The notes under the pieces were generated by a model. It saw only the letters and a list, made by a program, of their open reading frames with translations, was not told where the DNA came from and ran no database searches. Below, piece by piece: positions 19,017-54,787 of a DNA stretch of 64,000 nucleotides (position 1 is its first letter; each line of letters begins with the position of its first letter). The stretch spans positions 62,001 to 126,000 of the forward strand of contig NZ_LITT01000035.1 in NCBI RefSeq assembly GCF_001636845.1. The letters are read 5' to 3'. The position numbers were made by a program, and so were the translations under genes. The DNA is from Clostridium ljungdahlii (GTDB lineage Bacteria; Bacillota; Clostridia; Clostridiales; Clostridiaceae).

Positions 19017-19256
19017 TCTAACTTAAAAATCAACTTATACGCAGGCATATTTTTACAATAATGAAGTTCTTTTAAATATTTTGCGTATAGGTCTTAGGAA
19101 AAAATTCGTAAAAACTTAGAACTTTTGAATTGTCTGAGGTACGAGTTTTCAAAAGTTCTTAGCTTTTTTAGAATTTTTTACTTAGACTTATCAAAATATT
19201 TAATGAACTGAAGGTTGTAAAAAATATCCGTAGTATAAGTTGATTTTTTACTTAGA
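19017..19256 (-). repeat. 240-bp palindromic element, subfamily A, copy 1
   Basis: Terminal inverted repeats of 24 bp (19017-19040 and 19233-19256, core AAAAATCAACTTATAC) bound two ~115-bp arms that pair almost throughout. The centre on the plus strand is GAGGTACGAG (19136-19145). It starts 19 bp after the tyrS stop codon. It matches 23482-23720 and, inverted, 54280-54519. No open reading frame. It fills most of the 350-bp gap after the decarboxylase gene; similarity with copy 2 seems to run about 35 bp further left. Confidence 0.9.
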
Positions 19257-19275
19257 CCCCCATGTATAGATATTA

Positions 19276-20499
19276 CTAAACATTCTTTACCTTAACAAAC
19301 CTGGACTTTCCAACCTGAATAACAAAACTATTACCTGGATTTTGTATTAGAAAATTATTATATCTTTTACCATTTACTTTTATAGCATTTTGAGTTATAA
19401 GACGCTTAGCCTCACTATTACTAGCTGCAATTCCACTTCTTGTAATAATTTTTACTAAATTCACCTCGTCATTTGATGCAAGGCAATCTTGAGACAAAAT
19501 AAATTCGTCAATATCATTTGGAATGAGATTTTTTTGAAATACAGTCTTAAAATGCTCTTCAGCAGATTCTGCTTCACTTACTCCACAATATAAGGTTGTT
19601 ATTTCTTTTGCAAGCTGCATTTTAATGTCCCGGGGGTTTGTTTCTGTATTATTAAGCTTTAACTTAATTGCTTCAACTTCATCTGGATGAATATCTGTTG
19701 CAAGTTCAAAGTATTTAATAATAAGATTATCTGGGATAGTCATTGTCTTTTGGTAAATTGAAATGGCATCCTCACATATTCCAATATAATTTTCTAAACT
19801 TTTACTCATTTTTTCAACACCATCTGTGCCTTCAAGTAAAGGCATAAATAAAGCTATTTGGCTTTCCTGGCTGTAATCACCTTGTAATGTACGCCCCATT
19901 AAAACATTGAAGGTTTGATCTGTACCACCCATTTCAATATCTGCCTTTACCGCCACAGAGTCATACGCCTGCATTAACGGATAAAAAAATTCATGTAATC
20001 CTATAGGTTTATTGTTTTTATATCTTTTCTCAAAATCATCTCTTTCTAGTATTCTTGCAACAGTAACTTTTCCAGCAAGCTTTAACACATCTTCAAAATT
20101 GAGCTTAGATAACCATTCGCTATTAAACCTAACTTCTGTTTTATCTCTATCAAGTATTTTAAATACCTGTTTTTCATAAGTCCTAGCATTTTTAATCACC
20201 TGCTCCGTTGTCAATTGTCTGCGGGTTTTGCTCTTGCCTGAAGGATCACCAATTTTGCCAGTGAAATCACCAATTATGATTACTGCTTGATGTCCTAAAT
20301 CTTGCATTTGTTTGATTTTTCTAAGTACAACTGCATGACCAAGGTGTATATCTGGTGCAGAAGGATCAAGTCCAAGTTTAATCCTAAGGGGGATTCCTAA
20401 GGACACACTTCTCTCCAGCTTTTGCTTTAAATTTTTTTCGCTCACAACCTGACTTACACCTTTCATAATAATTTTAAACTGTTCTTCAACATCTTTCAT
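19276..20499 (-). CDS. tyrS: Tyrosyl-tRNA synthetase
   Basis: 407 residues from the ATG at 20499; an ATG three codons earlier overlaps the AAAGGATG ribosome site. Class I features: HLGH at 53-56 (HIGH motif) and KMSKS at 230-234. 'GLDPSAPDIHLGH' and the C-terminal S4 domain ('SGIAASNSEAKRLITQNAIKVNG') identify TyrRS, of the TyrZ-like group. It charges tRNA-Tyr. Expression is under a T-box leader at 20530-20821. Confidence 0.96.
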   Translation of the reverse strand: MKDVEEQFKIIMKGVSQVVSEKNLKQKLERSVSLGIPLRIKLGLDPSAPDIHLGHAVVLRKIKQMQDLGHQAVIIIGDFTGKIGDPSGKSKTRRQLTTEQVIKNARTYEKQVFKILDRDKTEVRFNSEWLSKLNFEDVLKLAGKVTVARILERDDFEKRYKNNKPIGLHEFFYPLMQAYDSVAVKADIEMGGTDQTFNVLMGRTLQGDYSQESQIALFMPLLEGTDGVEKMSKSLENYIGICEDAISIYQKTMTIPDNLIIKYFELATDIHPDEVEAIKLKLNNTETNPRDIKMQLAKEITTLYCGVSEAESAEEHFKTVFQKNLIPNDIDEFILSQDCLASNDEVNLVKIITRSGIAASNSEAKRLITQNAIKVNGKRYNNFLIQNPGNSFVIQVGKSRFVKVKNV

Positions 20500-20529
20500 T
20501 TCTGTCATCCTTTCTTATAAACAAAAATA

Positions 20530-20821
20530 AAAAACTCCCGTCCGCTGCATTACGCAAAGGACGGGAGTTTTACTCACGTGTTACCACCTCAAAATTTATT
20601 TATACATCACTGTATAAACCTCATTAGGTACGGCACAAAAGGCTTATACCCTAGCGATGTAACGGTCGCACCCGGCAACAGCCTACTAAGATATAAATCC
20701 TTTCAGTGTACCACTCAGAGATGTATTTCAAAATCTGTTTTCTACCCCTCTCATCAACCGGTAGCTTTCTGTTGAAAACTTATGATTTCTACTTCTTCTC
20801 ATCGCAGTTTTTAAATATATA
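20530..20821 (-). ncRNA. T-box riboswitch leader of tyrS
   Basis: On the minus strand the leader carries the T-box core GGTGGTAACACGTG (20575-20588), which pairs with uncharged tRNA-Tyr. A strong terminator follows: CTCCCGTCC at 535-543 with its complement at 559-567, then a T-run at 20531. Stem I elements (AGTAGA-like bulge, 'GGTTGATGAGAGGGG') lie at 20740-20800. Tyr codons UAC occur at 20708-20710 and 20723-20725; either could be the specifier. Confidence 0.9.
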
Positions 20822-20827
20822 GCTCAC

Positions 20828-20857
20828 ATTATATCACTTAAATCTAATACAAGTCAA
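20828..20857 (-). promoter_or_regulatory. Sigma-A promoter of tyrS
   Basis: Minus strand TTGACT (20852-20857), 18-base spacer, TATAAT (20828-20833) with a TG just before the -10 box. Start would be near 20821, the upstream edge of the T-box. Confidence 0.7.
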
Positions 20858-20972
20858 TTTTTACTATAGACAAGCTTTCACTTGAGGGTCAGCAAATTTA
20901 TCTATTTTAGAAATGATAAAATTATTAAATTCAACTTTATTATGGACATAACATTTAGAAAAGATAACCAAA

Positions 20973-21006
20973 AACACCACAAAATTCAAATGAATAATGT
21001 GGTGTT
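20973..21006 (-). terminator. Terminator-like hairpin in a gene-poor region
   Basis: AACACCACA (20973-20981) pairs perfectly with 20998-21006 around 16 bases. On the minus strand TTTGGTTATCTTTT follows. It lies 47 bases after a possible 11-codon reading frame. The rest of 20860-21470 shows no convincing gene. Confidence 0.5.
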
Positions 21007-21053
21007 CTAAAAAATTGTTAATTTTTTTAATTTTTATTTAAACCAGCTAATTA

Positions 21054-21089
21054 TTATTTTGTTTTAACTGTAATACTCTTATCCTTCAT
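21054..21089 (-). CDS. Possible 11-residue peptide gene
   Basis: ATG at 21089 follows AGAGGAA at a normal distance and reads MKDKSITVKTK, ending in TAA. A terminator-like hairpin lies 47 bases downstream, so the unit has a ribosome site, a short frame and an end. Chance is a real alternative in AT-rich DNA, and no promoter stands out. Function unknown. Confidence 0.2.
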   Translation of the reverse strand: MKDKSITVKTK

Positions 21090-21474
21090 AGTGTTATTCC
21101 TCTTTTAAATTATTTAAGAAATTTCTATTTTGATTTATATTTATAATTATTAGTTTCTATCTTAAAACCTTATAAAATATTCCCCTTTCCACCAATATGA
21201 ATTGAATTATTCCTAAAAACAATAAATCATTAGATCTCATACCTTCTAAAAATAGCAAAGCCTTGGATTATCATATTTAAAATATGCTGTCACAGCATGT
21301 ATAATAATATGTTTAAGTACCGTTGCAATAAGTAATCCTATCTTAGCTGTTAATATTACGCAAATAGCTGACTTAAACGGTAACTGGGAATTCAATATAA
21401 AAGTAGATAAAAATGAAATAGAAACTAAGTACAAATATAACACAATATAATATTATTTAAATTAAGTCATCTAT

Positions 21475-21505
21475 AAGTATACTTGTCGTTTTGACAAGTA
21501 TACTT
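21475..21505. promoter_or_regulatory. Double operator of the Xre regulator
   Basis: The palindrome AAGTATACTT occurs at 21475-21484 and 21496-21505, exactly 21 bp apart (two helical turns), overlapping the promoter of the regulator gene. This layout is typical of an autorepressor that binds as two dimers. Confidence 0.6.
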
Positions 21506-21532
21506 GACATGTATATTTCCATATGATAACAT
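21504..21532 (+). promoter_or_regulatory. Promoter of the Xre regulator
   Basis: TTGACA (21504-21509), 17-base spacer, TAACAT (21527-21532). A second TTGACA at 21491-21496 pairs less well with a -10 box. Confidence 0.55.
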
Positions 21533-21553
21533 CTATTTAATGGGGGTGTTACC

Positions 21554-21772
21554 TTGGACAATAAAACAAAATTAAATAATCATTTAAAAGTCGCACGTGC
21601 TGAACTTAATATTTCTCAAGAGCAACTTGCCAATATTGCCGGAGTAAGCCGCCAAACAATAAGTTCCATAGAAACTGGTCAATACTGCCCAACTGCTAAA
21701 TTAGCACTAATTCTTTCAAAGTGTTTGCAAAAAAAATTTGAAGATTTATTCTATTTAGAGGAGGAGGAATAA
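21554..21772 (+). CDS. Small Xre/Cro-family transcriptional regulator
   Basis: 72 residues, start TTG at 21554 after GGGGGTG. A single helix-turn-helix domain fills the protein: 'LNISQEQLANIAGVSRQTIS' is the recognition region, and 'YCPTAKLALILSKCLQKKFEDLF' completes the five-helix fold. It resembles the YozG-like regulators that pair with a small membrane protein. Two palindromes in its promoter suggest autoregulation. The following gene starts three bases after its stop, so they form an operon. Confidence 0.88.
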   Translation: MDNKTKLNNHLKVARAELNISQEQLANIAGVSRQTISSIETGQYCPTAKLALILSKCLQKKFEDLFYLEEEE

Positions 21773-21775
21773 AAA

Positions 21776-22117
21776 ATGTTTAAAAAAAGTAACAAACAAA
21801 ATAAAGTTACTCCTATTTATGGCATTATAGATGAAAGGACAAGAGCTATTGTATATAAAGGTGATGCTTATGCTGGCAGATTTATGTTGTTTGCAGTTCT
21901 CATAGATGGATTTATAAGAGGACTACATTTAAGTAGTCCTCTTATAAAATCAAATGGAGATTTACTGTTAATTGTAATAATTGGAGGTTTAATATCAACA
22001 GCTTATCAGATTAAAAATAAGGTTGTTTCTCATCATTCTTTTGTTCGTAGTTTTATTTTTATTGCGTTATTTACCGCATTTATTGCATTCTTAGTAACAT
22101 CTCTCTTTTTAAAATAA
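21776..22117 (+). CDS. Small membrane protein partnered with the Xre regulator
   Basis: 113 residues with three hydrophobic segments (about 36-50, 62-76, 90-110) after a soluble N-terminus ('VTPIYGIIDERTRAIVYKGDA'). GGAGGAG precedes it and it overlaps the regulator's operon. I recognise the gene pair as common in Firmicutes, but the membrane protein has no established function. It may be a membrane sensor or the regulator's sole target. Confidence 0.75.
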   Translation: MFKKSNKQNKVTPIYGIIDERTRAIVYKGDAYAGRFMLFAVLIDGFIRGLHLSSPLIKSNGDLLLIVIIGGLISTAYQIKNKVVSHHSFVRSFIFIALFTAFIAFLVTSLFLK

Positions 22118-22130
22118 TTGTTGGTTTTAT

Positions 22131-22170
22131 GGCTGTGTTTATTAAAATAAAATCTTCACGGCCTTTTTTT
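22131..22170 (+). terminator. Terminator of the Xre/membrane-protein operon
   Basis: GGCTGTG (22131-22137) pairs with CACGGCC (22157-22163, one G-U pair), followed by seven Ts. Confidence 0.8.
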
Positions 22171-22197
22171 AATTAAATTCTGAATTCACATTTAAGT

Positions 22198-22653
22198 CAC
22201 TGCATCTGCTAATTTTAATCCAGGTAAAATTTCATCCCTATATCTATCCCAAATTCTTTTAACTCTGCACTACTTGTATTCCATCAGAGCCTTCTGCATC
22301 GAATGGCTCAAGTTGTGATAATAATTCATCTTCTCTCTTTAAGACAATATGTTCTGGTGTATTATATCCTCCATAAGACTCTACTACAAGCAAAAAATTT
22401 GTGTTTGGAATAACTTTTTCAATAAAATCAATTACAATATCTAACATTATATTCAAATTTACAATCCAATTCTCAGGCTTTGTTTTTCCCATACCTGGTA
22501 AGTCAATATATATTCTTTTATACTCCTCTCTATTCTTAAATACAGGTTCCATGCATCCCTTCATTAATCTATGATCTACATGAGATCAATGTAACATAAT
22601 AATCGGTTTGCCATTACCTATTATTTCATAATTAATAGATATATTTTTTATCT
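22198..22653 (-). pseudogene. Decayed alpha/beta hydrolase gene
   Basis: Reading along the minus strand, 'YEIIGNGKPIIMLH' is followed by TGA (22586-22588) where the family has the HG glycine, then 'SHVDHRLMKGCMEP', 'IYIDLPGMGKT' and 'LLVVESYGGY'. The nucleophile elbow G-x-S-x-G has valine before E-S. After 22259 the likely C-terminal continuation ('VKRIWDRYRDEILPG') lies in another frame and stops early, well short of a normal hydrolase. One nonsense codon, one frameshift and a deletion mark it as non-functional. No ATG with a ribosome site precedes it. Confidence 0.8.
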
Positions 22654-22883
22654 TACACTAGTCTCTAACTTAAAAATATAATTACATAACTCAACTTTCA
22701 CACATACAAAATTTTTACTTAAATATAAGAAGAAAATCTATCTATCATAAATTTATAATACATCAACATAATTTTTGTTTTACGAACATAAAAACGCCGT
22801 AAAATTTTTTTAAATAATATGGGGTTTCAGTAAATTATTGACTTTTAAATTGTTATATTAAATAAGAATATTAAGAAATAACT

Positions 22884-23189
22884 TTATTTGTTTAAATTAT
22901 TTTTTATTCTTAAAAAAACCCCTAAACGAATTACAGTTATAACATCTATGATAGCAATTATAGATGTTAAGATTACCATAATTAATAAATTTGATTCTAA
23001 ATAAGCAAGCAGAAATAAAAACATTAAGTTTAAACCAATAACTATATTATTATATTTAATTTGCCTTTTTTCCAAATCTTTACTAAAAGTAAATTTATTA
23101 ATTTTATACTTACTATATTTACTTATAATTAGCTTTATTATCCCCATTACAACTATAAAGTTAATTATAATTAATAAAATTTCAGGCAT
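22884..23189 (-). CDS. Small hypothetical membrane protein
   Basis: 101 residues from the ATG at 23189 (GGAG six bases upstream); a TTG four codons earlier overlaps that site. Three hydrophobic segments: residues 3-22, about 48-63 and 67-88. The basic loop between the first two ('KYSKYKINKFTFSKDLEKRQIK') should be cytoplasmic. I recognise no family. An extended -10 (TGATATAAT on the minus strand, 23268-23276) could drive it. A real but lineage-specific gene is likely. Confidence 0.55.
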   Translation of the reverse strand: MPEILLIIINFIVVMGIIKLIISKYSKYKINKFTFSKDLEKRQIKYNNIVIGLNLMFLFLLAYLESNLLIMVILTSIIAIIDVITVIRLGVFLRIKNNLNK

Positions 23190-23386
23190 CTTTATCTCCA
23201 ATCTAATAAATATAAATTTTTATAGTTACACCTTGATATCTTACGATTCTGACTATATCATAGAAGAATTATATCACACTTTTATGTTATATATCACCAC
23301 TTATGTAAAATAAGCTTATTTTTGGCACCGCATTATTCAATTTTCAAAGATCATTTTTCATATTTCAAATAGATTTATATAATTAA

Positions 23387-23445
23387 GAGTTGACTTATAT
23401 TCGGAAAATATGATGACAAAATTGAAATCACGTTTAAAAACTTTA
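23387..23445 (+). repeat. Truncated subfamily-B element
   Basis: Matches the left end of the element at 54545, for example the shared ATGACAAAATTGAAA (23411-23425) and TTTAAAAACTTT, but stops before the palindrome centre. It lies directly left of the A element at 23482, the same neighbours as in the 54280-54787 pair. Confidence 0.6.
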
Positions 23446-23481
23446 GAAATGAACTGTTTATAAGTATACTATACAATAATC

Positions 23482-23720
23482 TCTAACTTAAAAATCAACT
23501 TATACGCAGGCACATTTTTACAATAATGAAGCTCTTTTAAATATTTTGCATATAAGTCTTAGGAAAAAATTCGTAAAAACTTAGAACTTTTGAATTGTCT
23601 GAGGTACGAGTTTTCAAAAGTTCTTAGCTTTTTTAGAATTTTTTACTTAGACTTATCAAAATATTTAATGAACTGAATGTTGTAAAAATATTCGTAGTAT
23701 AAGTTGATTTTTTGCTTAGA
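23482..23720 (-). repeat. 239-bp palindromic element, subfamily A, copy 2
   Basis: Terminal repeats at 23482-23505 and 23697-23720; centre GAGGTACGAG at 23601-23610 on the plus strand. It begins two bases after the stop codon of the FMN oxidase gene and is nearly identical to copy 1. The similarity with copy 1 continues about 35 bp to the left. Confidence 0.9.
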
Positions 23721-23722
23721 TT

Positions 23723-24739
23723 CTATTTATAAAGTATTCTACCATCTATATTTTTAACAGACTTACATCCTGTCAAAACCATAGCTGATTTTAGTTCACT
23801 CTTCAAATTTTCTACATAAACCTTTACTCCTTCTCTTTGTCCTCCAAAGGATGCAGTTACAAAAGGTCTTCCTATAAGTACGGCATCTGCACCTAAAGCT
23901 AACATTTTAAGTACATCCACACCAGTTCTCACGCCACCATCTGCAAGTATTGTAACCTTGCCTTTAACTGCCTTCGCTATCTCTGGAAGTACCTCTGCCA
24001 CTCCAGGAGTTTGATCTAAAACTCTTCCACCATGGTTTGAAACAACTATGGCACTTACTCCAGCTTTAACTGCAAGTTCTGCTTCGTCTGGGGTCATTAT
24101 TCCCTTTAATATAAAAGGAAGTTTTGTACTTTCTACAACTTCTTTTATTTCTTCTAAAGTCTTAGGTCCTACAGGTTTTCCATGAAGTGCTAAGGTTATT
24201 AATCCTGCAGCATCTATATCCATTCCTACTGCAAAAGCTCCTGCTTTTTCAGCAAGTTTTATTTTACTTATAACATTTTTATTTTCCCAAGGTTTTATTA
24301 CAGCTATGCCTTCTCCATTAAATTCTTTAAGCTTTTCAAGATTAGTTATAAGAAAAGAATCTACTGCTGTATCTCCTACCATAGGATATATTCCTGCATC
24401 CAGACATCCTCCTATAACTGAAGAAATGTACTCTTCCTCAGTAAACTTTCCACCCATATTCAAAGTAGTTCCTGATACAGGTGCTGCAAAAACAGGTATG
24501 TCCATCTTTTTTCCAAATAACTCTATTGAGGTGTCAGGATCTTTAGCATCATGTATAACTCTCATATTCAATTTACATTTGCTTAGTGAATTAAAATTTT
24601 CTTTAAAAGAGTCTCCTGTTCCCTTTCCTCCCATGCCTGGTACTTCTCCAGCACATGCGTTTCCATTACAGGCAGGACATACCCTGCAGCTTCCATTTAA
24701 ATTTTCCCTTGCATTTTTTAATACATCTTTATAGTTCAT
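23723..24739 (-). CDS. FMN-dependent alpha-hydroxy-acid oxidising protein
   Basis: 338 residues, TIM barrel of the lactate/glycolate oxidase and dehydrogenase family. FMN and substrate motifs: SNHGGR (234-239, with the catalytic histidine), DGGVRTG (267-273) and IGRPF near 290. It is predicted cytoplasmic and would oxidise an L-2-hydroxyacid such as lactate. Odd is the N-terminus: Cys18, 21, 24 and 29 in 'CRVCPACNGNACAG', absent from aerobic family members, which could hold a metal or an iron-sulfur cluster. The ribosome site is weak. Confidence 0.85.
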   Translation of the reverse strand: MNYKDVLKNARENLNGSCRVCPACNGNACAGEVPGMGGKGTGDSFKENFNSLSKCKLNMRVIHDAKDPDTSIELFGKKMDIPVFAAPVSGTTLNMGGKFTEEEYISSVIGGCLDAGIYPMVGDTAVDSFLITNLEKLKEFNGEGIAVIKPWENKNVISKIKLAEKAGAFAVGMDIDAAGLITLALHGKPVGPKTLEEIKEVVESTKLPFILKGIMTPDEAELAVKAGVSAIVVSNHGGRVLDQTPGVAEVLPEIAKAVKGKVTILADGGVRTGVDVLKMLALGADAVLIGRPFVTASFGGQREGVKVYVENLKSELKSAMVLTGCKSVKNIDGRILYK

Positions 24740-24823
24740 AATAATGCCGCCAAATATTAAATTTCTTAATATTTAACAGTTCTTCACCCCTTTCAAGTAA
24801 CATTTTATTTAAATATTGAATTT

Positions 24824-24880
24824 AGGCATTTTCAGAGAAATAACTAATCCATATACCAGCCTATTTTCTTTCAAATGCCT
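24824..24880 (-). repeat. 57-bp palindromic repeat, copy 2
   Basis: Arms AGGCATTTTCAGAGAAATA and TATTTTCTTTCAAATGCCT; same length and orientation as 5482-5538. Its right arm overlaps the last codons and stop of the DUF523 gene. Confidence 0.8.
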
Positions 24881-25325
24881 TATTAAAATCATCTTCTCCA
24901 TATATCTTTATATGGTTTTTGCTTAAAAGTTCTGCTGTTATTCCGGCACCTTCAATAATGTTTCCATTAAAACTTCCATCATATATTTTACCAAAACCAC
25001 AGGATGGACTTTTAGACTTTAGAACAGCTTCTTTTATATTACATGCCTTAGCTACTTTTAGAGTTTCATAGGCTCCCTTTAAAAATTCACTTGTACAATT
25101 TTCTCCAGTAGAACTCATTACAGCAGCTTTTCCATCTATCACATCTTTACCTGTACCACCACATATTTCGCAAGGATTTCTAGGAGTCTTAAGTCCACCT
25201 AACTGTTCTGGACATAAGGGCAGCGCCTTTCCTTCTTTCACGAGACTTAGTATTTTCTCGCAAAGATTATTTCCTCCATTATATTTAGTATCAATACCAC
25301 ACAAGCATGCACTTACTAATATCAC
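24861..25325 (-). CDS. DUF523 family protein
   Basis: 154 residues from GTG at 25325, which gives the usual family start 'ILVSACLCG'; a GTG three codons earlier lies one base from AAGGAG. Conserved features: SACLCG (Cys residues 7 and 9), 'LPLCPEQLGGLKTPR', 'CEICGG' and 'LKSKSPSCG'. The many cysteines suggest metal binding; the function is unknown, and some relatives are fused to or confused with DUF1722 proteins. The final KAFERK and stop codon are encoded by the 57-bp repeat at 24824-24880. It starts 14 bases after mutS2 ends, so both are probably co-transcribed. Confidence 0.85.
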   Translation of the reverse strand: MILVSACLCGIDTKYNGGNNLCEKILSLVKEGKALPLCPEQLGGLKTPRNPCEICGGTGKDVIDGKAAVMSSTGENCTSEFLKGAYETLKVAKACNIKEAVLKSKSPSCGFGKIYDGSFNGNIIEGAGITAELLSKNHIKIYGEDDFNKAFERK

Positions 25326-25339
25326 TCCAGCCACACTCC

Positions 25340-33390: not shown

Positions 33391-33628
33391 TTCTAGTTAA
33401 AAATAAAATTATTCTCCGATATATTTTTACAACCTTCAGCTCGTTAAATATTTTGATAAGTCTTAGTGAGATATTTTAGGAAATCTTAGAAGCTTAGATA
33501 TGTTTGAGGTACGAGTTTAGCTAAGCTCCTTAGATTTTCAAAATATCGAACTTTAGACTTATTAAAAGTTTTTATGGTGATGAAATTTGTTATCATATTC
33601 AGCGTATATGTCAATTTCAATTTAGAAA
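33391..33628 (-). repeat. 238-bp palindromic element, A/B chimera, between pheS and pheT
   Basis: The left arm (33391-33470) matches subfamily A, for example ACAACCTTCAG and TTAAATATTTTGATAAGTC; the right arm matches subfamily B at 54675-54787. The centre GAGGTACGAG is at 33506-33515. It begins five bases after the pheS stop codon. Confidence 0.85.
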
Positions 33629-34694: not shown

Positions 34695-34960
34695 AAAAGC
34701 CCATCCCTCTAAGGGACGAACTTTGATCCGCGTTACCACCCAAATTGATACTATTAGAAAATAATATCCTCTTTGTATATTTTAACGATAATTAACCGCT
34801 GACTGCTAATTATAATTTCACAGCCAGTACTCCAGGAGGAACTTCAATATATAATGTTTTTAAAAAAGCTTCCAGCCCTGACTTTTTTTCTCTGATAAAA
34901 ATCATATATCTACTTTCTCTTTCACAGTAAATATCCTTATTCAATTTTTATTGTTTATAT
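34695..34960 (-). ncRNA. T-box riboswitch leader of pheST
   Basis: Minus-strand T-box core GGTGGTAACGCGG (34728-34740). The terminator is formed by GTTCGTCCCT and AGGGATGGGC (34699-34722, with G-U pairs) followed by TTTTTATTTTT. The antiterminator would form with uncharged tRNA-Phe. I did not resolve the UUC specifier loop. Confidence 0.88.
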
Positions 34961-41184: not shown

Positions 41185-41260
41185 GGGCGCATAGCTCAGC
41201 TGGGAGAGCATCTGCCTTACAAGCAGAGGGTCACAGGTTCGAGCCCTGTTGTGCCCACCA
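41185..41260 (+). tRNA. tRNA-Val (UAC)
   Basis: 76 bases with encoded CCA. Acceptor GGGCGCA/TGTGCCC, GTTCGAG T-loop region, anticodon TAC in CCTTACAA. Decodes GUN valine codons. Confidence 0.97.
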
Positions 41261-41323
41261 ATTTATATACTATTACTTCTTTAAAGTGTAGTTTGTAAAT
41301 ATTCGAGGTAATACATTGTCTTT

Positions 41324-41399
<76 letters not shown>

Positions 41400-41411
41400 G
41401 ATTCAAAATAT

Positions 41412-41486
41412 GCGGGAGTGGCTCAGTGGTAGAGCGTCACCTTGCCAAGGTGAACGTCGCGAGTTCGAATCTCGTCTTCCGCTCCA
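41412..41486 (+). tRNA. tRNA-Gly (GCC)
   Basis: 75 bases with encoded CCA. Acceptor GCGGGAG/CTTCCGC, anticodon GCC in CTTGCCAAG. Confidence 0.97.
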
Positions 41487-41491
41487 ATAAT

Positions 41492-41565
<74 letters not shown>

Positions 41566-41566
41566 T

Positions 41567-46923: not shown

Positions 46924-46948
46924 ATATACTATAATTATTATAGTATAT
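46924..46948. promoter_or_regulatory. 25-base AT palindrome upstream of asd and the spore-protein gene
   Basis: A perfect palindrome centred at 46936 (ATATACTATAAT / ATTATAGTATAT). It lies in the 490-base region between divergent genes; ATTATAGTAT recurs at 46969. It could be an operator. The rest of 46545-46920 shows no gene and no lysine riboswitch. Confidence 0.4.
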
Positions 46949-46978
46949 TATGTATTTATTCTACAGCAATTATAGTAT

Positions 46979-47007
46979 GTATAAATCTCGCTTTTGGGGT
47001 AAAAATA
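46979..47007 (+). promoter_or_regulatory. Candidate forespore (sigma-F/sigma-G) promoter
   Basis: GTATA (46979-46983), 14-base spacer, GGTAAAAATA (46998-47007), which fits the known sigma-F pattern GYATA...GGNNANANTR. It lies 31 bases before a spore-protein start codon. Confidence 0.5.
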
Positions 47008-47037
47008 ATCTATAGTAAAAGTGGGAGGATGGTATCT

Positions 47038-47307: not shown

Positions 47308-47443
47308 ATTTGACTTATACCTCAAAAATATATAATATTAATTGATAAATACAATTTTACCTTTTTTAACTTTAAACACCTATAAAAATACCTGTAAGAA
47401 GGGAGTTAAAGACCGTTATGAAAATTTGATAACGGAAATAAAA

Positions 47444-48184: not shown

Positions 48185-48213
48185 TACACGTATGATTAGG
48201 AGATGGAAATTAA

Positions 48214-49104
48214 ATGATAGATAAATTAATAAGAGCCACAGCTAAAGATGATAACATTCGAATAATAGCAGCCTCTACTACAAATCTAGTAAATGAAGCT
48301 GTTAAAATTCATGAATGTGCTCCTACAGCTGCAGCAGCCTTTGGAAGGATGCTCACGGCAGGAAGCCTTATGGGGGCAATGTTAAAATCACCTAAAGATA
48401 GCTTATCCCTTATAATTTCTGGAGGCGGTGAAGCTAAAGGAATATCTGTAACTTCCTATGCTGACTGCCATGTAAAAGGATATATAGGAAACCCACTTGC
48501 AAATTTGCCACCAAATAGTAAAGGAAAACTTGACGTAGGTGGAATCATAGGAACTAATGGAAATTTAACCGTAGTAAGAAATATGGGACTTAGAGAACCT
48601 TACTCCAGCAAAATTCCTATACAAACTGGGGAAATAGGAGATGATCTAGCTTACTACTTTACAGTTTCAGAGCAAACTCCATCTGCAGTAGCCCTTGGAG
48701 TTCTCGTAGATGTAGATTTAAGTATAAAGGCCTCAGGAGGATTCATCATTCAGATGCTTCCTGGAGCAGAAGATCTCCTTGCAGACTTAGTTACCTATAG
48801 GTTACAGGAACTTCCATCTATATCAAATATGCTAGCTAAGGGCATGAGTATTTCACAAATATTAAATGATATCTTTAAGGATATGGGATTAAAGATATTA
48901 GATGAATTAACACCTACTTATAAATGCGATTGTTCAAGGGAAAGAGTTGAAAAGGCTCTTATAAGCATAGGTGCAAAAGATTTAGAGGAAATTTATAATG
49001 AAGGAAAAACTGAAGAATTAAAATGTAACTTTTGTAAGACATCTTATAAATTTACCCATGAGCAAATAGGTGAAATACTTAAAAACTCCACAAAAAAATC
49101 CTGA
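48214..49104 (+). CDS. hslO: Redox-regulated chaperone Hsp33
   Basis: 296 residues. The N-terminal domain has '[15 protein letters not shown]' and '[15 protein letters not shown]'. The C-terminal redox switch has CDC and CNFC, four cysteines that bind zinc when reduced. Oxidation and unfolding turn it into a holdase. AGGAGATGG precedes the ATG. Confidence 0.97.
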
Positions 49105-49142
49105 TATTAAGTACAAATTATCTACATACTTAAACTTTTATA

Positions 49143-49151
49143 TGTTATAAT
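49143..49151 (+). promoter_or_regulatory. Extended -10 promoter of dapH
   Basis: TGTTATAAT (TG-n-TATAAT) about 90 bases before the dapH start. The -35 region is weak, as expected for an extended -10 promoter. Confidence 0.45.
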
Positions 49152-49238
49152 TTGCTTAAAAAACTAAAAACGTAGTTATGCTTACTATAAAAGACTAAAA
49201 TTTATTCATTATAAATAAAATGGAAAGGATGATTTAAA

Positions 49239-49955
49239 ATGGAAGCAAAATATGACCTTACAGATCCATATCAAATAGCAAAGTATATAAAAGAGGCTAA
49301 AAAATCTACTCCAGTTAAAGTTTACCTTAAAGGTGACATATCAAATTGTGATTTAGGCAGTATAGAAAATTATAATAGTGGTGATTTTTACATTCTCTTT
49401 GGAGAAAGCGATGAAATATCAAAATTTTTAGAAGAAAACAAAGATAAGATCAAGCAATTTAGAATAGAACAGGACAGAAGAAACTCAGCCATTCCCCTTG
49501 CTGATTTGACAAACATGAATGCCAGAATTGAACCTGGTGCTATTATAAGAGATAAAGTTAAAATAGACAAAAATGCAGTAGTAATGATGGGGGCAGTTAT
49601 AAACATAGGTGCAGAAATAGGTGAAGGCACTATGATAGATATGAATGCAGTAGTAGGTGCTAGAGGAAAACTTGGTAAAAATGTTCACTTAGGTGCTGGA
49701 GCTGTAGTAGCTGGAGTTTTAGAACCACCTAGTAAATCACCTTGTGAGATAGGTGACAATGTACTTATAGGAGCTAACTCCGTAATCTTAGAAGGAGTAA
49801 AAATTGGAACTGGCTCTGTAATTGCAGCAGGTTCAGTAGTAACAGAAGATATACCTGAAGGAGTTGTAGCTGCTGGAAGCCCTGCAAAAATAGTAAAGTC
49901 AGTAGATGATAAAACTAAAGGCAAAACTAAAATTTTATCAGATTTAAGGAAATAA
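49239..49955 (+). CDS. dapH: Tetrahydrodipicolinate N-acetyltransferase
   Basis: 238 residues. The N-terminal DapH domain ('[22 protein letters not shown]') is followed by left-handed beta-helix hexapeptide repeats ('[19 protein letters not shown]', '[16 protein letters not shown]', '[21 protein letters not shown]'). It acetylates tetrahydrodipicolinate, opening the branch completed by patA. That it is DapH and not the succinylase DapD shows in length and opening. A separate unit about 5.6 kb from patA. Confidence 0.95.
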
Positions 49956-49968
49956 TTCATCTAGAAAA

Positions 49969-50017
49969 TACAGGGTATAACCTCCTTAAAATTCAAGGAC
50001 AAGGCCTATACCCTGTA
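49969..50017. terminator. Terminator after dapH
   Basis: TACAGGGTATA (49969-49979) pairs perfectly with 50007-50017 around 27 bases, between the convergent dapH and SSB-like genes. There is no strong T-run. Confidence 0.6.
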
Positions 50018-50031
50018 AATACAGATTCTGT

Positions 50032-50760
50032 TTATGATATACGCTTATCGCCTATGTTATCCCCTAAGCTATTTTCATCTTCATTTTTAGGTTGTTCTTT
50101 TTCCTCTTCTTCGTTTTCTTCCTCCATTTTTTCTTTATCTCTGTTAACTTTTTCCATTTTAGATATAGAAACTTCATAAGCTATTTTCCTTACAGTTTCA
50201 GTATCTGATATCTTTTTTTGATATTCTCTACTCTGTAATCTTCCCCAAACCCTTATATTGTCACTTACTTTTAATGACTTACAAAACCTAGAATTTCTTC
50301 CCCAAGCAATGGTAGGTATGTAATCAGACTTATTATAAGCTCTGTTTACAGCTAGAAGCATATCTGAGATTTCTCTACCAAAGGGAGTTGTCCTATAAAC
50401 TGGCTCCTTGCATATAAATCCATCAAGAAAAATTTGATTTGGATTTTTACTCCTTTCAGTGCAAAAATCTATATTTCTTGCAAATACAGTTAATATCAAT
50501 CTATTTGCCCCATCCACAAATTTATTGTAGGACCTAAGCTGTCCTTCTATTATTACATCAGTTCCAACTTTGATATCCATTCCACCTATAAGTCTCTCTG
50601 AAATTGTAATGAATAGTATATCCTTACTTTCACTTAATCTAGGAACCTCAACATTAAAGGTGTAAAAACCCTCTCCATACATTTCGTGGCTAAATTGTAA
50701 TTCTGAAGCTACTGTACCTTCAAGATAGATCTTATTGTTTAACATTAAATTGTCCATCAT
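50032..50760 (-). CDS. Two-OB-fold SSB-like protein
   Basis: 242 residues. The first OB fold (about 8-100, 'IYLEGTVASELQFSHEMYG') and the second (about 107-205, 'IFLDGFICKEPVYRTTPFGREIS', 'IPTIAWGRNSRFCK', 'VWGRLQSREYQ') are both SSB-like; the second is closer to the canonical form. The tail (209-242) is acidic but lacks the DDIPF-type tip of housekeeping SSB. It may bind single-stranded DNA as a special-purpose protein. The gene for an unknown 165-residue protein lies 77 bases upstream on the same strand. Confidence 0.8.
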   Translation of the reverse strand: MMDNLMLNNKIYLEGTVASELQFSHEMYGEGFYTFNVEVPRLSESKDILFITISERLIGGMDIKVGTDVIIEGQLRSYNKFVDGANRLILTVFARNIDFCTERSKNPNQIFLDGFICKEPVYRTTPFGREISDMLLAVNRAYNKSDYIPTIAWGRNSRFCKSLKVSDNIRVWGRLQSREYQKKISDTETVRKIAYEVSISKMEKVNRDKEKMEEENEEEEKEQPKNEDENSLGDNIGDKRIS

Positions 50761-50837
50761 AAACCCCTCTTTCCCTTAGTTTTAAATGTTTCACTATCAT
50801 ATAGTTATTCATCAAAAAACAAAAATATACTTATAAT

Positions 50838-51335
50838 TTAGCTTAAAGTCATAAATGTTTTATTTTTGATCAAATCATAAATGCACTTGTCTTCCATAAG
50901 ACCTATAGTTATAGCTACTACAGCTGCGTAAAGTTCATCAATATCTTTGAGTGCCATATTAACTGGAATTTCCTGAGCCTCAATCACCCTTTTTCCCTCA
51001 TATATAATATCTCTTTGGAGGCAATATACAAATCCGCTAGAATAGTCTAAGCTCGATATAGTAACCGTATTCTTATTTCCCAGTCCATAGGTTATGATGC
51101 AACCGGATATATCTACATTATTTTTCTTTTTACATATTAAATCCATATTTACAAAACAATAATCTCCATCCAGAACTTTGTACCTTTTGTCTATAGAATT
51201 TAGCACTACATAATTTATCCTTCTACTAGCATCATTGCTTGTAAACGTACAGTAGTCTAAATTCATTAAATCAAAAAGCTCTACCAAATATCTCTTAAAC
51301 TGGGCATTAGTTTCAATAACTTCTATAGATTGCAT
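50838..51335 (-). CDS. Hypothetical protein
   Basis: 165 residues, start ATG after GGGAGG. I recognise no family. It is soluble, alpha+beta in pattern, with 'GCIITYGLGNKNTVTISSLD' and 'EAQEIPVNMALKDIDELYAAVVAITIGLMEDK' as the most ordered stretches. Probably co-transcribed with the SSB-like gene, which hints at a nucleic-acid role, but this is only context. Confidence 0.65.
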   Translation of the reverse strand: MQSIEVIETNAQFKRYLVELFDLMNLDYCTFTSNDASRRINYVVLNSIDKRYKVLDGDYCFVNMDLICKKKNNVDISGCIITYGLGNKNTVTISSLDYSSGFVYCLQRDIIYEGKRVIEAQEIPVNMALKDIDELYAAVVAITIGLMEDKCIYDLIKNKTFMTLS

Positions 51336-51498
51336 CTTTATTACCTCCCGCTAAAATATATGTTTTAAAATTATTTTAAACAGGATATGTTTTTTTATAC
51401 TATTTTCTAAATTGTAATCCAATCATTGATGCTTGCCCTCATTGCCATTATAATACATATTTATTGTGTTTTTCAATAATTGTTTAATATAAGTTATA

Positions 51499-52251
51499 TT
51501 AATTTCTCATCTGCTTTCCGTCATAGTCCATTTTATAGTTATCTTTATATATCAAATCTCCTACCTTAACAAACTTGTATCCTTTTTCCTTTAAGTTTAC
51601 TATTACCCTTTCTAAATTAGATGGTGTATACTTTGCACTATTATGAAATAGTAATATAGAACCAGGTTTTGTACTTTTTATAACCCTGTTGTATTCAAGA
51701 TCTGCCCCCTGCTCTTTCCAGTCTATACTATCTACATCCCATTGAATGCAGTAATATCCTGAATTCTTTACTGTATCTATTACATCGTCATTATAAGACC
51801 CTTCAGGACATCTAAACAGTTTTGTTCCACTTCCTGTTATACTTCTTATTTTAGCTTCATTTATGTTTATATCTTCAATAATTTTATCTCTAGATATTTT
51901 CGTCATATTAGGGTGCCTATTTGAATGATTTCCTATTTCGTGTCCTTTATTATATATCTCTTTTAGTTTATCGGGATTTCTATCAACCCAGTCCCCTACT
52001 ACAAAGAATGTAGCTTTTATATTATGTTTATCCAGTACATTTAATATCTCATCAATGTATTCATCTCCTAGACTAACATCAAAAGTTATAGCAACTTTTT
52101 TATCTTTTGTGTCAACACAATAAATAGGTAATTTCCTATTTACTCTTGCAAATGCCCCTTCATATCTATAATTTGCAAATAATGATACGCCAATAGCTAT
52201 AAGCAATAATATGGACACCATAAATATTTTTTTTATACATCTTGATTTCAA
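51499..52251 (-). CDS. Polysaccharide deacetylase, PdaB-like
   Basis: 250 residues, start TTG at 52251 after GGAGG. An N-terminal membrane anchor (9-27) precedes a NodB domain: 'VAITFDVSLGDEYIDEIL' (motif 1), HSNRHPNM (motif 2, H-x3-H), 'LFRCPEGSYND' (motif 3) and 'GSILLFHNSA' (motif 5). Motif 1 has one aspartate in place of the usual pair (TFDV for TFDD), as in PdaB spore proteins. It probably acts on spore peptidoglycan, outside the membrane. Confidence 0.88.
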   Translation of the reverse strand: MKSRCIKKIFMVSILLLIAIGVSLFANYRYEGAFARVNRKLPIYCVDTKDKKVAITFDVSLGDEYIDEILNVLDKHNIKATFFVVGDWVDRNPDKLKEIYNKGHEIGNHSNRHPNMTKISRDKIIEDININEAKIRSITGSGTKLFRCPEGSYNDDVIDTVKNSGYYCIQWDVDSIDWKEQGADLEYNRVIKSTKPGSILLFHNSAKYTPSNLERVIVNLKEKGYKFVKVGDLIYKDNYKMDYDGKQMRN

Positions 52252-52383
52252 TTTTTACCTCCACAATATATTTATTTCATAATTTTATATAGTATTTTAT
52301 AACAACAAATATTACAAAATTCAAAAAATTTATTTTAGATATATTACATTCAAAAATATGCATTCAAATATTTTATACAACTA

Positions 52384-52392
52384 TGCTATAAT
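52384..52392 (+). promoter_or_regulatory. Extended -10 promoter of the DUF4364 gene
   Basis: TGCTATAAT (TG-n-TATAAT) about 50 bases before the start codon at 52442; no clear -35 box. Confidence 0.5.
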
Positions 52393-52441
52393 ATACATAT
52401 ATATTATTTTAGTATTCTTAATTCAATGGAGAGGATTTTAA

Positions 52442-52969
52442 ATGTTTGAAAACACTTTAGAACTAGCAGAAAATAAATTACTTCTGCTTTACATATTTAA
52501 GAAAATCAAGTTTCCTATTTCCAATAATCAAATAACTGAAGTCATACTGGAAAATGACTTCATAAATTATTTTACTCTTCAACAATATTTAAATGAGCTT
52601 CTATCTTCTAATTTTATCAAGCAGATAGATTCTCAAAGTAACCATAAATTTATAATTACAAAAAAAGGCATAAAGGTGTTGTCCCTCTTCGGAAATAGAA
52701 TTTCCAAAGATAAAATAGATATATTAGACAACTATATAGATGAGCGTTTTAATGACATAAAAAGTAAAATCTCAGTAAATGCCAACTATACAGCTAAACA
52801 TAAAAACAGTTTTATGGTAAATTTAAAAATATCAGAAAGTAATTCCACCTTAATGAATTTGAAGCTAAATGTGGACTCTAAAAAAACTGCCCAAGGTCTA
52901 TGTGAAAAGTGGGAAAAAAACTTTTCAGAAATTTATTATAAAATAGTTGAATTACTTATGGAAGATTAA
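52442..52969 (+). CDS. DUF4364 family protein (winged-helix-like)
   Basis: 175 residues. The N-terminal part ('LAENKLLLLYIFKKIKFPISNNQITEVIL', 'LQQYLNELLSSNFI') has the shape of a winged helix, and 'ITKKGIKVLSLFGNRI' closes that domain. The C-terminal part is a beta-rich region. It matches the pattern of DUF4364 proteins of clostridia, whose role is unknown but presumed regulatory. GGAGAGGA precedes the ATG. It ends five bases before the convergent propeller gene. Confidence 0.8.
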   Translation: MFENTLELAENKLLLLYIFKKIKFPISNNQITEVILENDFINYFTLQQYLNELLSSNFIKQIDSQSNHKFIITKKGIKVLSLFGNRISKDKIDILDNYIDERFNDIKSKISVNANYTAKHKNSFMVNLKISESNSTLMNLKLNVDSKKTAQGLCEKWEKNFSEIYYKIVELLMED

Positions 52970-52973
52970 AGAT

Positions 52974-53864
52974 TTATTTCACAACCATACCTGTAGGTTC
53001 TCCACCTATAGGTATATATTTTTTATTTTCATCTTTTAAATTTACCTTTATCAATAAATTGTTATAGTTATCACCCACGTATAAACTTCCCCTTCGTTTT
53101 AATACACTTGCAGGCATACCCCCTACAATCAACCTCTTTTTCTCCTTATAGTTATTTATATCCAAAACACTTATTGTGCCATCTCCAAAATTAGATACAA
53201 AACAGTATCTACTGCTGCAGTATATGTCTACTGGCGAATTTCCCACAATAATTCTATTTATAATTTTATAGTTTTTAAGTGATAATATGGCTATACTTCC
53301 CCTAAACTCCGATCCTATATTGCTTTCACAGATAAGTATATGCTGTCCATCCACTGCAAACACAGCCTTAGTAGGATAGTATCCTACCCTTATGTTAGCT
53401 ATACGTTCATTTTTTTTGCAGTCTATTAATGTTATGCTATCGTCTTCCATATTAGATATTACTAGCAACTTTTTTTCCTTATTCAAACATATACTATAAG
53501 GAAGATTTCCACAGGGAACTTCTTCAACCACTTTTCTCATGCTAAGATCAAAAACAAGTAAGCTGTTTAAATCACTGCATATTATATATGCATTATTTTT
53601 ATAGGTAATAATATCATTGCAGCATGCCCCAACGTAATAAGTTTCTTCCTGAATTTCATTTTTTATATCTATTATAGATATGCTGTTATTATATTTATTT
53701 GCTGTTATAAGTTTAGAATCACTTAAACATACACCATGGGGTCCAACTCTATAGGTCATGTCCTCAGATTTTAAATGTATTCTAGTTTCTTCATGAAAAT
53801 CATCCAGATTCACCTTTGATACCGTATCAGAAGAAGTGCTACATATATAAAGATACTCCAACAC
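52974..53864 (-). CDS. YncE-like beta-propeller protein
   Basis: 296 residues, start GTG at 53864 after GGGGG. Seven propeller-like repeats are visible, each with a pattern such as 'NSISIIDIKN', 'DSITLIDCKKN', 'GTISVLDINNYKEKKRLIVGG'. No signal peptide, so it should be cytoplasmic, unusual for this type, which is often exported. Function unknown. Confidence 0.8.
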   Translation of the reverse strand: MLEYLYICSTSSDTVSKVNLDDFHEETRIHLKSEDMTYRVGPHGVCLSDSKLITANKYNNSISIIDIKNEIQEETYYVGACCNDIITYKNNAYIICSDLNSLLVFDLSMRKVVEEVPCGNLPYSICLNKEKKLLVISNMEDDSITLIDCKKNERIANIRVGYYPTKAVFAVDGQHILICESNIGSEFRGSIAILSLKNYKIINRIIVGNSPVDIYCSSRYCFVSNFGDGTISVLDINNYKEKKRLIVGGMPASVLKRRGSLYVGDNYNNLLIKVNLKDENKKYIPIGGEPTGMVVK

Positions 53865-53932
53865 ACCATCGCCCCCTTACAACTATAATATGAAGGTTAG
53901 CTAAAATAGGTAATACTAATTAATTTATTTTG

Positions 53933-53961
53933 TTGTATATTAACTTTATATTCTATATAAT
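53933..53961 (+). promoter_or_regulatory. Promoter of the TSCPD gene
   Basis: TTGTAT (53933-53938), 17-base spacer, TATAAT (53956-53961). Confidence 0.7.
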
Positions 53962-54003
53962 TATTTTGTTACTACATTATTTTATATGAAACAAGGTGAT
54001 GAA

Positions 54004-54255
54004 ATGTACAGTTATATAACAAAAGGAGTTTGTTCAAGTCAAATAAATTTTGATGTTGTAGAAAACAAAATTAGAAATGTAAATTTTGTAGGAGGATGTA
54101 ATGGGAACTTACAAGGTATATCAAAATTAGTAGAAGGAATGGATGTAGCTGAAGCTGTCGAAAAATTAGAGGGAATTTCCTGCAGTGGAAAAGGGACTTC
54201 CTGTCCTGATCAATTTGCAACTGCCCTTAAAAAATTAGTTTTAAACCGTAAGTAA
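54004..54255 (+). CDS. TSCPD-domain protein (TIGR03905 type)
   Basis: 83 residues from the ATG at 54004 (AAGGTGAT upstream); an earlier ATG lies before the site. 'YITKGVCSSQINFDV' and 'VGGCNGNLQGISKL' open it, and 'GTSCPDQFATAL' is the TSCPD motif. The domain is shared with the C-terminus of class II ribonucleotide reductases; the free-standing form has no proven function. A palindromic element begins 24 bases after its stop. Confidence 0.88.
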   Translation: MYSYITKGVCSSQINFDVVENKIRNVNFVGGCNGNLQGISKLVEGMDVAEAVEKLEGISCSGKGTSCPDQFATALKKLVLNRK

Positions 54256-54279
54256 AAAATTTATCTAACATATAGATCT

Positions 54280-54519
54280 TCTAAGCAAAAAATCAACTTA
54301 TTCTACGGATATCTTTTACAACCTTCAGTTCATTAAATATTTTGATAAGTCTAAGTAAAAAATTCTAAAAAAGCTAAGAACTTTTGAAAACTCGTACCTC
54401 AGACAATTCAAAAGTTCTAAGTTTTTACGAATTTTTTTCTAAGACTTATATGCAAAATATTTAAAAGAACTTCATTATTGTAAAAATATACCTGCGTATA
54501 AGTTGATTTTTAAGTTAGA
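54280..54519 (+). repeat. 240-bp palindromic element, subfamily A, copy 3 (inverted)
   Basis: The inverse of 19017-19256, with terminal repeats at 54280-54301 and 54496-54519. The centre on the plus strand is CTCGTACCTC (54391-54400). Downstream of a plus-strand gene, so its orientation relative to the upstream gene is the same as in the other copies. Confidence 0.9.
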
Positions 54520-54544
54520 ATACCCATATAAATCTATATAGGGC

Positions 54545-54787
54545 TTCTAATTGAAATTTAAACTTATACATAAAATGTAATGACAAAATTGAAAGCACCT
54601 TTAAAAACTTTTCCATAAGTCTTAGCGAGGCATTTTAGAAAATCTTAGGAGCTTAGATATGTTTGAGGTACGAGTTTATCTAAGGTTCTTAGATTTTCAA
54701 AATACCGAGCTTTAGACTTGTCAAAAGTTTTTATGGTGCTAAAATTTGTCATTACATGCTTTGTATAAGTTAACTTTCAATCTAGAA
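54545..54787 (-). repeat. 243-bp palindromic element, subfamily B
   Basis: Terminal repeats 54545-54569 and 54763-54787 (core TTGAAA...AACTTATAC). The centre GAGGTACGAG is at 54665-54674. Arms differ from subfamily A but fold the same way. It begins 12 bases after the folC stop. With copy A3 it fills the gap between the convergent TSCPD and folC genes. Confidence 0.88.

What the first reader, a model, noticed from the sequence alone, without database searches (positions are those of the whole stretch)
19017..54787. Family of ~240-bp near-palindromic elements, each placed just after a stop codon
Five full copies (19017-19256, 23482-23720, 33391-33628, 54280-54519, 54545-54787) have terminal inverted repeats and arms that pair along most of their length. 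Each starts 2-24 bp after the stop codon of a different gene: 19 bp (tyrS), 2 bp (FMN oxidase), 5 bp (pheS), 24 bp (TSCPD), 12 bp (folC). None codes for protein. Fixed length, clear ends and 3'-end placement recall REP/BIME elements of enterobacteria, but the sequence is not one I know.
Basis: partly seen in the sequence, partly recalled or inferred. Interest (0 to 1): 0.85.

Follow-up and report, generated by a model that had tools for sequence, protein, structure and literature searches.

The report
Orientation-locked hairpin repeats after stop codons
Some clostridial genomes carry many scattered DNA hairpins of about 240 bases with a nearly invariant tip, which usually sit just past the end of a gene and point the same way; they look like an undescribed family of mobile elements.

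Summary
The five copies are real and belong to a larger family. The window's genome has about 90 full copies, in two subfamilies (A, B). The conserved ends lie about 13 bp further out. The 3'-end rule holds and is stronger than claimed: in stretches of three sister species the same end of the element faces a stop codon within 60 bp in 157 of 199 copies (null 14.5%). Read in the gene's sense, the apical loop is AAACTCGTACCTCARAC. Adjacent copies are back to back, one A and one B, in 44 of 45 cases. At 8 of 14 orthologous loci the pair order is reversed between species; at two or three the same unit looks inverted in place, at others it was replaced. In other genera the arms diverge, in one beyond recognition, yet still pair, and the loop core persists (wide pattern in 64 of 225 genomes of the order, some by chance). 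In one genus the hairpin ends a 1.1-1.8 kb element with terminal inverted repeats and no ORF over 53 aa. No Rfam family, no paper found in the open library, no mobilising enzyme found. Most likely: a non-autonomous foldback element inserting with fixed polarity at gene 3' ends, perhaps into terminators.

The parts
19017..19256 (-). Type A hairpin, single, 19 bp after the tyrS stop; strand given is the sense of the host gene
19132..19148 (-). Apical loop, AAACTCGTACCTCAGAC in host-gene sense
   Evidence: G000:C24:81132-81148
23482..23720 (-). Type A hairpin, 2 bp after the stop of the FMN-dependent lactate dehydrogenase/oxidase-like gene
23393..23444 (.). B-type piece beside the A copy (84.6% to copy 54545 over 52 bp), probably a decayed partner
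33391..33628 (-). Chimeric copy (A-type left arm, B-type right arm) between pheS and pheT, 5 bp after the pheS stop
33502..33518 (-). Apical loop of the pheS-pheT copy, AAACTCGTACCTCAAAC in sense
54280..54519 (+). Type A hairpin of an <A B> pair, 24 bp after the TSCPD gene stop
54520..54544 (.). Spacer of the pair; nearly identical to the spacer of the G003 pair at C1:3869206 and close to that of the own pair at C24:218799
54545..54787 (-). Type B hairpin of the pair, 12 bp after the folC stop
18928..18943 (+). TTTCTCAAACAAAAAA: apparent left-end remnant of the element that G003 and G005 still carry after this + gene

Best explanation
A family of non-autonomous foldback mobile elements of Clostridiales. 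Each unit is a hairpin of about 240-265 bp whose arms drift in sequence but keep pairing, capped by a nearly invariant apical loop (AAACTCG-N(2-6)-CTCARAC in gene sense) and ended by terminal inverted repeats (TIRs) that differ between lineages. Units occur singly or as back-to-back pairs of two diverged types, A and B. Shown: dispersal; polarity and 3'-end placement in several genera; paired arms of differing sequence; the A/B pairing rule; replacement of members or whole pairs at one site; the same unit in opposite order at two or three loci; and, in G019, a 1.1-1.8 kb version with TIRs and no ORF over 53 aa. Inferred: a transposase acting in trans on the TIRs moves the unit; insertion is targeted with fixed polarity to the gene 3' end, probably the intrinsic terminator hairpin; the hairpin is then copied into the mRNA as a 3'-UTR or intercistronic stem, and is unlikely to be an absolute terminator because it lies between pheS and pheT.
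For: Placement and polarity: 157 of 199 within 60 bp of a stop with the same end; single copies 82 of 95 facing and 11 of 95 backing a stop, 8 of these both. Other genomes, gene in front points at the element: G205 35 of 43 rows, 25 within 60 bp (one copy counted twice), G019 7 of 7, G061 5 of 7, G202 5 of 7, G211/G212 2 of 4, G161/G141 21 of 21, 10 of them within 200 nt loop to stop. Arms: own-arm pairing 87-92 of 110 on average, A with B arms 77-79, G212 with other lineages 40-58, shuffled 60. Mobility: near-identical G019 copies with different upstream flanks, 97% over 1.65 kb between two, TIRs at both ends of 3 of 5 re-fetched G019 copies and of L211; patchy presence, exact loop in 9 of 206 family genomes. 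In-place inversion: C12:265902 (A .944, B .979, both rank 1) and C1:291557 (B .969 rank 1, A .931 rank 4), with matching spacers and swapped flanks. Terminator target: L249 lies inside a 20-nt perfect inverted repeat and L270 inside a 12-nt one followed by a T run; complementary flank runs of 9 or more in 7 of 41 copies against 1.9 on average (max 5) with flanks swapped.
Against: No clean empty site and no target-site duplication was found. No transposase with matching ends was found; of 10 ORFs around G019/G061 TIR sites none matches a DDE transposase in Pfam, but most transposase families were not searched genome-wide. Recognition by TIRs does not explain why the loop is the most conserved part or why TIRs differ between lineages. 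Of the 7 copies with complementary flanks only L249 and L270 look like terminators; the others are AT-rich or lie off the ends. In the three sister species the flank signal is small (about 7.5 against 7.05 of 16, sd 0.11). My terminator scans were too insensitive to decide. At several reversed loci the copies are not orthologous, so replacement or independent insertion is simpler there. 42 of 199 copies break the 60-bp rule; 28 of these have a partner or piece of one at their back. In G211/G212 only 2 of 4 fit.
Confidence: 0.55

Rival explanations
1. A cis-acting RNA element: transcribed into mRNA 3' ends, the long stem and its fixed loop are bound by a protein or RNA and stabilise, process (for example by RNase III) or regulate the message; position and polarity are kept by selection.
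For: Loop nearly invariant and polarity fixed relative to transcription across genera; arms vary but stay paired; copies between pheS and pheT in three species; 3 of 22 facing single copies in G003 follow genes on the presumed lagging strand (origin and terminus assumed), so polarity seems to track the gene.
Against: Selection on a sense-RNA stem should favour G.U over A.C deviations; it does not (A 364 vs 422, B 217 vs 212 at majority Watson-Crick pairs; all aligned mismatches 338 vs 542, where fixed mismatches may add to A.C). No Rfam family. Copies spread within species (97% alike in G019).
Confidence: 0.2
2. Portable transcription terminators (as recalled for E. faecalis efar): the hairpin followed by T tracts ends transcription, so copies persist at transcript ends and between convergent genes.
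For: Element in 71 of 200 convergent gaps, 51 of 400 (++), 41 of 482 (--) and 5 of 196 divergent gaps; the inner stem is followed by T tracts on both strands; a scan finds terminator-like hairpins inside in the antisense direction in 37 of 82 copies at dG -6.
Against: In sense, the direction in which the host gene enters, the same scans find 0 of 82 and 4 of 82, though the scans are weak; pheT starts 20-40 bp behind a copy in an operon; a near-symmetric terminator needs no fixed polarity.
Confidence: 0.12
3. Giant REP/BIME-like repeats moved by a Y1 (HUH) transposase that recognises the folded single strand.
For: A/B dimers in opposite orientation at gene 3' ends resemble BIMEs; fixed loop and A.A mismatches resemble hairpin recognition marks; PF01797 occurs in 7 of the 9 loop-bearing genomes.
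Against: PF01797 not detected in G003 or G019, the latter with recently copied elements, and present in 8 of 11 loop-free or loop-poor relatives searched; no GTAG/GGAG foot seen; long TIRs.
Confidence: 0.06

Closest known systems
REP / BIME / REPIN of enterobacteria and Pseudomonas (PMC12306157, PMC3733652: passages read)
   Same: Dispersed, palindromic, non-coding, often 3' of genes (PMC12306157: 446 of 4,072 predicted E. coli REPs within 15 nt of a stop); dimers in opposite orientation; unidirectional and convergent gaps preferred (PMC3733652)
   Different: 20-40 bp against 240-265 bp; here the loop is conserved and the arms drift; Y1 transposase not detected in two loop-bearing genomes; single copies have fixed polarity
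Efa elements of Enterococcus faecalis and Ype of Yersinia (PMC1590033: passages read)
   Same: Larger-than-REP hairpin repeats, one of them in a Firmicute, inserted preferentially near CDS 3' ends; the authors mention mRNA stabilisation
   Different: The passages read describe families of one species each and mention no conserved loop, polarity, A/B pairing or exchange; sequences not compared here
MITEs (non-autonomous DNA transposon derivatives; recalled)
   Same: Short, no long ORF, TIRs, high copy, intergenic
   Different: Most conserved part is the centre, not the ends; TIRs differ between lineages; TSD and parent IS not found
Integron attC sites (recalled)
   Same: Imperfect hairpins with drifting arms, conserved unpaired features and fixed polarity after a gene's stop
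   Different: attC conserves boxes at the stem foot; here ordinary housekeeping genes; integrase not searched
Group IIC introns (recalled)
   Same: Insert with polarity at terminators downstream of genes
   Different: No intron match in Rfam scans; RVT_1 not detected in G003, G019, G061, G205, G212

Membership tests
REP/BIME | 20-40 bp palindrome with a GTAG/GGAG/CGTC tag | tested here: not met
   240-265 bp, ends TATAGAGTTTCTAA
REP/BIME | Cognate Y1 (RAYT) transposase in the genome | tested here: not met
   PF01797: 0 matches in G003 and G019; 1-3 in each of the other 7 loop-bearing genomes, 3 in the own
REP/BIME | Preference for gene 3' ends and inverted dimers | tested here: met
MITE | No long coding region, many copies | tested here: met
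   no ORF of 100 aa or more inside the window copies; longest ORF 42-53 aa in four G019 units; copy number
MITE | Terminal inverted repeats | tested here: met
   29 and 26 of 30 bases identical in L255 and L256, shorter but clear in L257 and L211; TATAGAGTTTCTA in the window's genome
MITE | Target-site duplication | tested here: inconclusive
   No clean empty site; none obvious in G019
MITE | Parent transposase with matching TIRs | tested here: inconclusive
   22 TIR places in G019/G061; 10 ORFs near some of them gave no DDE transposase; rest not searched
Known structured RNA (Rfam 15) | Covariance-model match to the element | tested here: not met
   Searches (window, gathering; 14 loci, E-value mode): only miRNA-precursor scores far below gathering, and a T-box elsewhere in L307
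Group II intron | Intron RNA or reverse transcriptase | tested here: not met
   RVT_1 not detected in G003 and G019
Integron attC | R/L boxes at the stem foot and an integron integrase | not tested
   boxes and integrase not searched
efar/Efa (E. faecalis) | Sequence relationship | not tested
   Efa sequences not held here
efar/Efa (E. faecalis) | Terminator activity (recalled) | tested here: inconclusive

The most novel reading that the evidence does not exclude
A categorically new, order-wide class of genetic element defined by its tip and not by its ends or arms: a folded strand carrying AAACTCG-N-CTCARAC is recognised by an unknown machinery that inserts, inverts and exchanges such cassettes with fixed polarity at gene 3' ends (attC-like logic outside integrons), while terminal repeats and arm sequences are free to change.
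Probability: 0.3. Interest if true: 0.93.

Novelty: new variant of a known kind. Interest (0 to 1): 0.78.

Why it matters
Some seventy gene ends of this genome, among them those of pheS, tyrS and folC, carry a 240-bp hairpin of fixed polarity, yet I found no description in Rfam or the open-access library. Strong polarity, a nearly invariant loop on arms that diverge until unrecognisable, and cassette-like reversal and replacement at fixed sites ask directly what recognises the tip and how an insertion can sense gene direction.

Tried and rejected
Chance palindromes: rejected. REP/RAYT and reverse-transcriptase mobilisation: not supported, since both enzymes were not detected in G003 and G019. 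Known RNA: no match. Phage or plasmid origin: no blastn match of window 54250-54800 in the phage and plasmid collections and no exact loop in viral contigs. Composite transposon at tyrS in G003: the 5 kb between holds what look like ordinary genes, judged by eye. Clean empty sites: none, only deletion remnants or unalignable gaps; G004/G009 have a 44-bp pheS-pheT gap too diverged to place the junction. Terminator scans: the detectors recover only 24 of 250 and 39 of 200 control gene ends (upstream controls 14 of 250 and 31 of 200), so I draw no conclusion; within elements they give 0 of 82 sense and 2 of 82 antisense, 4 of 82 sense and 37 of 82 antisense at dG -6, and 10 of 82 beyond the element. 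Replication polarity instead of gene polarity: 3 of 22 facing singles in G003 follow presumed lagging-strand genes against 121 of 514 genes; compatible with following genes, small numbers. Wobble test: G.U not above A.C, against an RNA reading. RNAalifold on the cross-genus alignment gave only 7 pairs because MAFFT misplaced arm indels; replaced by the arm-swap test.

Limits of counts: stretches of G000, G003 and G005 were mostly chosen around copies, so occupancy of orthologous loci is biased; in the one contiguous stretch (300 kb of G003) my reading is that 9 of 11 full-length loci of contig C24 are occupied. For G161 I fetched 17 of 25 wide-pattern matches, for G141 4 of 9. Distances use an approximate element edge. 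The pattern is nearly mirror-symmetric, so its control is not independent and is high in genus g24; some single matches are chance: of 30 loci five (L297, L301-L304) do not show the hairpin clearly.
Full report
Observation. The five copies exist at the stated coordinates and distances; gene names are supported by NCBIfam except the loosely named FMN enzyme, which matches below cut-off. Each is a long imperfect foldback. Copy 54280 reads in the opposite direction to the other four because its host gene is on the other strand; relative to the host gene all five have the same polarity.

Genome. A loop pattern with up to 3 mismatches gives 47 + 54 places in the own genome against 6 + 10 for the reversed control. 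In 609 kb of stretches fetched around hits, nhmmer keeps 108 hits: 87 longer than 180 bp and 21 pieces. With stretches of two sister species (G003, 4,630,065 bp, by size C. ljungdahlii, recalled; G005 = C. ragsdalei P11 by matching contig lengths) there are 199 long copies: 87, 57 and 55. They fall into two subfamilies, A (133) and B (66), about 15% different within and 36% between.

Placement. The end of the element at the 5' side of the sense-read loop (AAACTCGTACCTCARAC) abuts a gene 3' end in 161 of 199 copies and lies within 60 bp of a stop codon in 157. Random placement in the same intergenic space gives 14.5%. Single copies alone: 82 of 95 face and 11 of 95 back a stop codon within 60 bp, 8 of these both. 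Element-bearing gaps (168 of 1278): 71 of 200 convergent, 51 of 400 (++), 41 of 482 (--), 5 of 196 divergent. Of the 42 exceptions, 28 have a partner, or a piece of one, at their back.

Pairs, reversal, exchange. Of 45 neighbouring pairs (gap under 450 bp), 44 are back to back and one A with one B; the other is A and B in tandem; none is AA or BB. A likely reason is that a back-to-back pair of one type would be a long near-perfect palindrome and unstable (inference). Orthologous loci were found for 44 of 81 element clusters. At 14 loci at least two species keep a full pair; by my tally the order A/B is reversed at 8 and the same at 6. At C12:265902 and C1:291557 the reversed copies are the same unit: B is the best match (A rank 1 and rank 4), the spacer is conserved, and left and right flanks are swapped at TATAGAG/CTCTATA. 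At pheS-pheT B is also the best match (.920) but A is not (rank 10). At C24:116283 (folC) and C12:272390 both members, and at C47:214837 the B member, are unlike their positional counterparts although the outer end sequences that I compared are kept, so members or whole pairs were replaced; the folC pair of the window has the spacer seen in the pair at G003 C1:3869206. C19:7818 and C5:102041 are mixed or low. Loci with the same order are mostly .94-.996 identical and rank 1 (exception: A at C24:218799.917, rank 9). Pairs also decay to singles or chimeras, as at pheS in the window.

Other lineages. The exact loop occurs in 9 of 206 family genomes and in 2 of 391 genomes sampled from the class, both of the same family. 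The wider pattern AAACTCG-N(2-6)-CTCARAC has at least one match in 64 of 225 genomes of the order, 21 of 56 genera (some are chance, and the control is high in one genus because the pattern is nearly mirror-symmetric). In one locus per genome for 30 genomes, 25 show paired arms (64-78 of 90, shuffles 31-57) and five do not clearly (44-55); 19 of the 30, or 18 of the 25, follow a stop in sense within 220 nt of the loop, 9 do not and 2 were called in a gene. In G161 and G141 the front gene is in sense in 21 of 21, 10 within 200 nt of the loop; G161 left arms pair with A right arms of the own genome at 70 of 100, against 84 with their own and 61 for shuffles. From: G019 7 of 7, G061 5 of 7, G202 5 of 7 (one 954 nt away; two rows are copies of one sequence), G211/G212 2 of 4.

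Structure. Within a copy the arms pair at 87-92 of 110 positions on average; A arms with B arms 77-79; A with G061, G202 or C. thailandense about 74-77; G212 with the others 40-58, not above shuffles (60). Own arms beat the mean of other copies of the same subfamily in 130 of 133 (A) and 62 of 66 (B). So pairing is kept while sequence changes. Two CTAAG/CTAAG segments facing each other with an A.A mismatch recur in many rows of the alignment. G.U is not commoner than A.C, which speaks against selection on the sense RNA stem and for upkeep at the DNA level, for instance by templated repair between arms or folding of either DNA strand.

Mobile form. In G019 three copies share the hairpin and more than 300 bp behind it but not what lies in front. 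Four units (L255, L256, L257, L211) are 1.1-1.8 kb, bounded by inverted repeats of roughly 20-30 bp, with no ORF over 53 aa; two (L256, L211) have near the far end an inverted loop variant GTTTGAGCAAAGCGAGTTT. With the copy L253 they start about 0-35 bp behind an ORF's stop codon. Other TIR-bounded stretches of G019/G061 carry loop variants and ORFs up to 95 aa; of 10 ORFs in or near them searched in Pfam none is a DDE transposase. PF01797 and RVT_1 were not detected in G019 and G003.

Target. In C. thailandense copy L249 sits exactly between the arms of a 20-nt inverted repeat that ends in CCCCTTT, and L270 between 12-nt arms followed by TTCCCTTTTTTT; L237, L267 and L271 look alike with shorter matches. 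Among 41 distinct copies of C. thailandense and G202, own flanks have a complementary run of 9 or more in 7, against 1.9 on average and 5 at most when flanks are swapped; only L249 and L270 of the 7 look like terminators. In the three sister species the excess is small. This suggests, but does not prove, insertion into terminator hairpins.

Reading. I commit to a non-autonomous foldback element with polarised insertion at gene 3' ends (0.55). An RNA-level role of loop and stem is possible and may coexist. What recognises the loop is unknown; that is the open question.

Literature. Searches found no paper on this family; most subscription papers are not held. I read passages of PMC1590033, PMC12306157, PMC3733652 and PMC4022347, and only search listings of the rest.

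Noticed in passing
window 20554-20814, 34709-34934, 58903-59114 (all -): Three T-box leaders, lying before tyrS, pheS and a third minus-strand gene (56170-58821).
   Followed up: no
window 41185-41562 (+): Cluster of four tRNA genes.
   Followed up: no
G005 folC locus (L128) and pair at G005 C25:17051 (L164); C. thailandense L106; G202 L222: Other short structured insertions (roughly 70-180 bp) lie inside arms or spacers of these hairpins; they look like further small mobile repeats, possibly IS605-type ends (guess).
   Followed up: no
G003:C1 about 3742670-3747973: At the tyrS locus G003 has about 5 kb with several ORFs (by eye a sigma factor and a PadR-like regulator among them, no family search) between a type A copy and a right-end remnant; the window's genome does not.
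   Followed up: partly
loop of the copies: The loop is nearly a mirror repeat, AAACTC-GTAC-CTCAAA; in other genera the tip is often GC-N-GC, which could pair.
   Followed up: no
G161 loci L325-L340: Copies in this genome are very alike, and many seem to begin with an extra module, the loop lying 123-322 nt behind the stop.
   Followed up: no
G061 L280 2046-2546 (-): Piece of a TnpB-like protein (Cas12f1-like TNB domain) about 0.5 kb beyond a TIR-bounded stretch.
   Followed up: no
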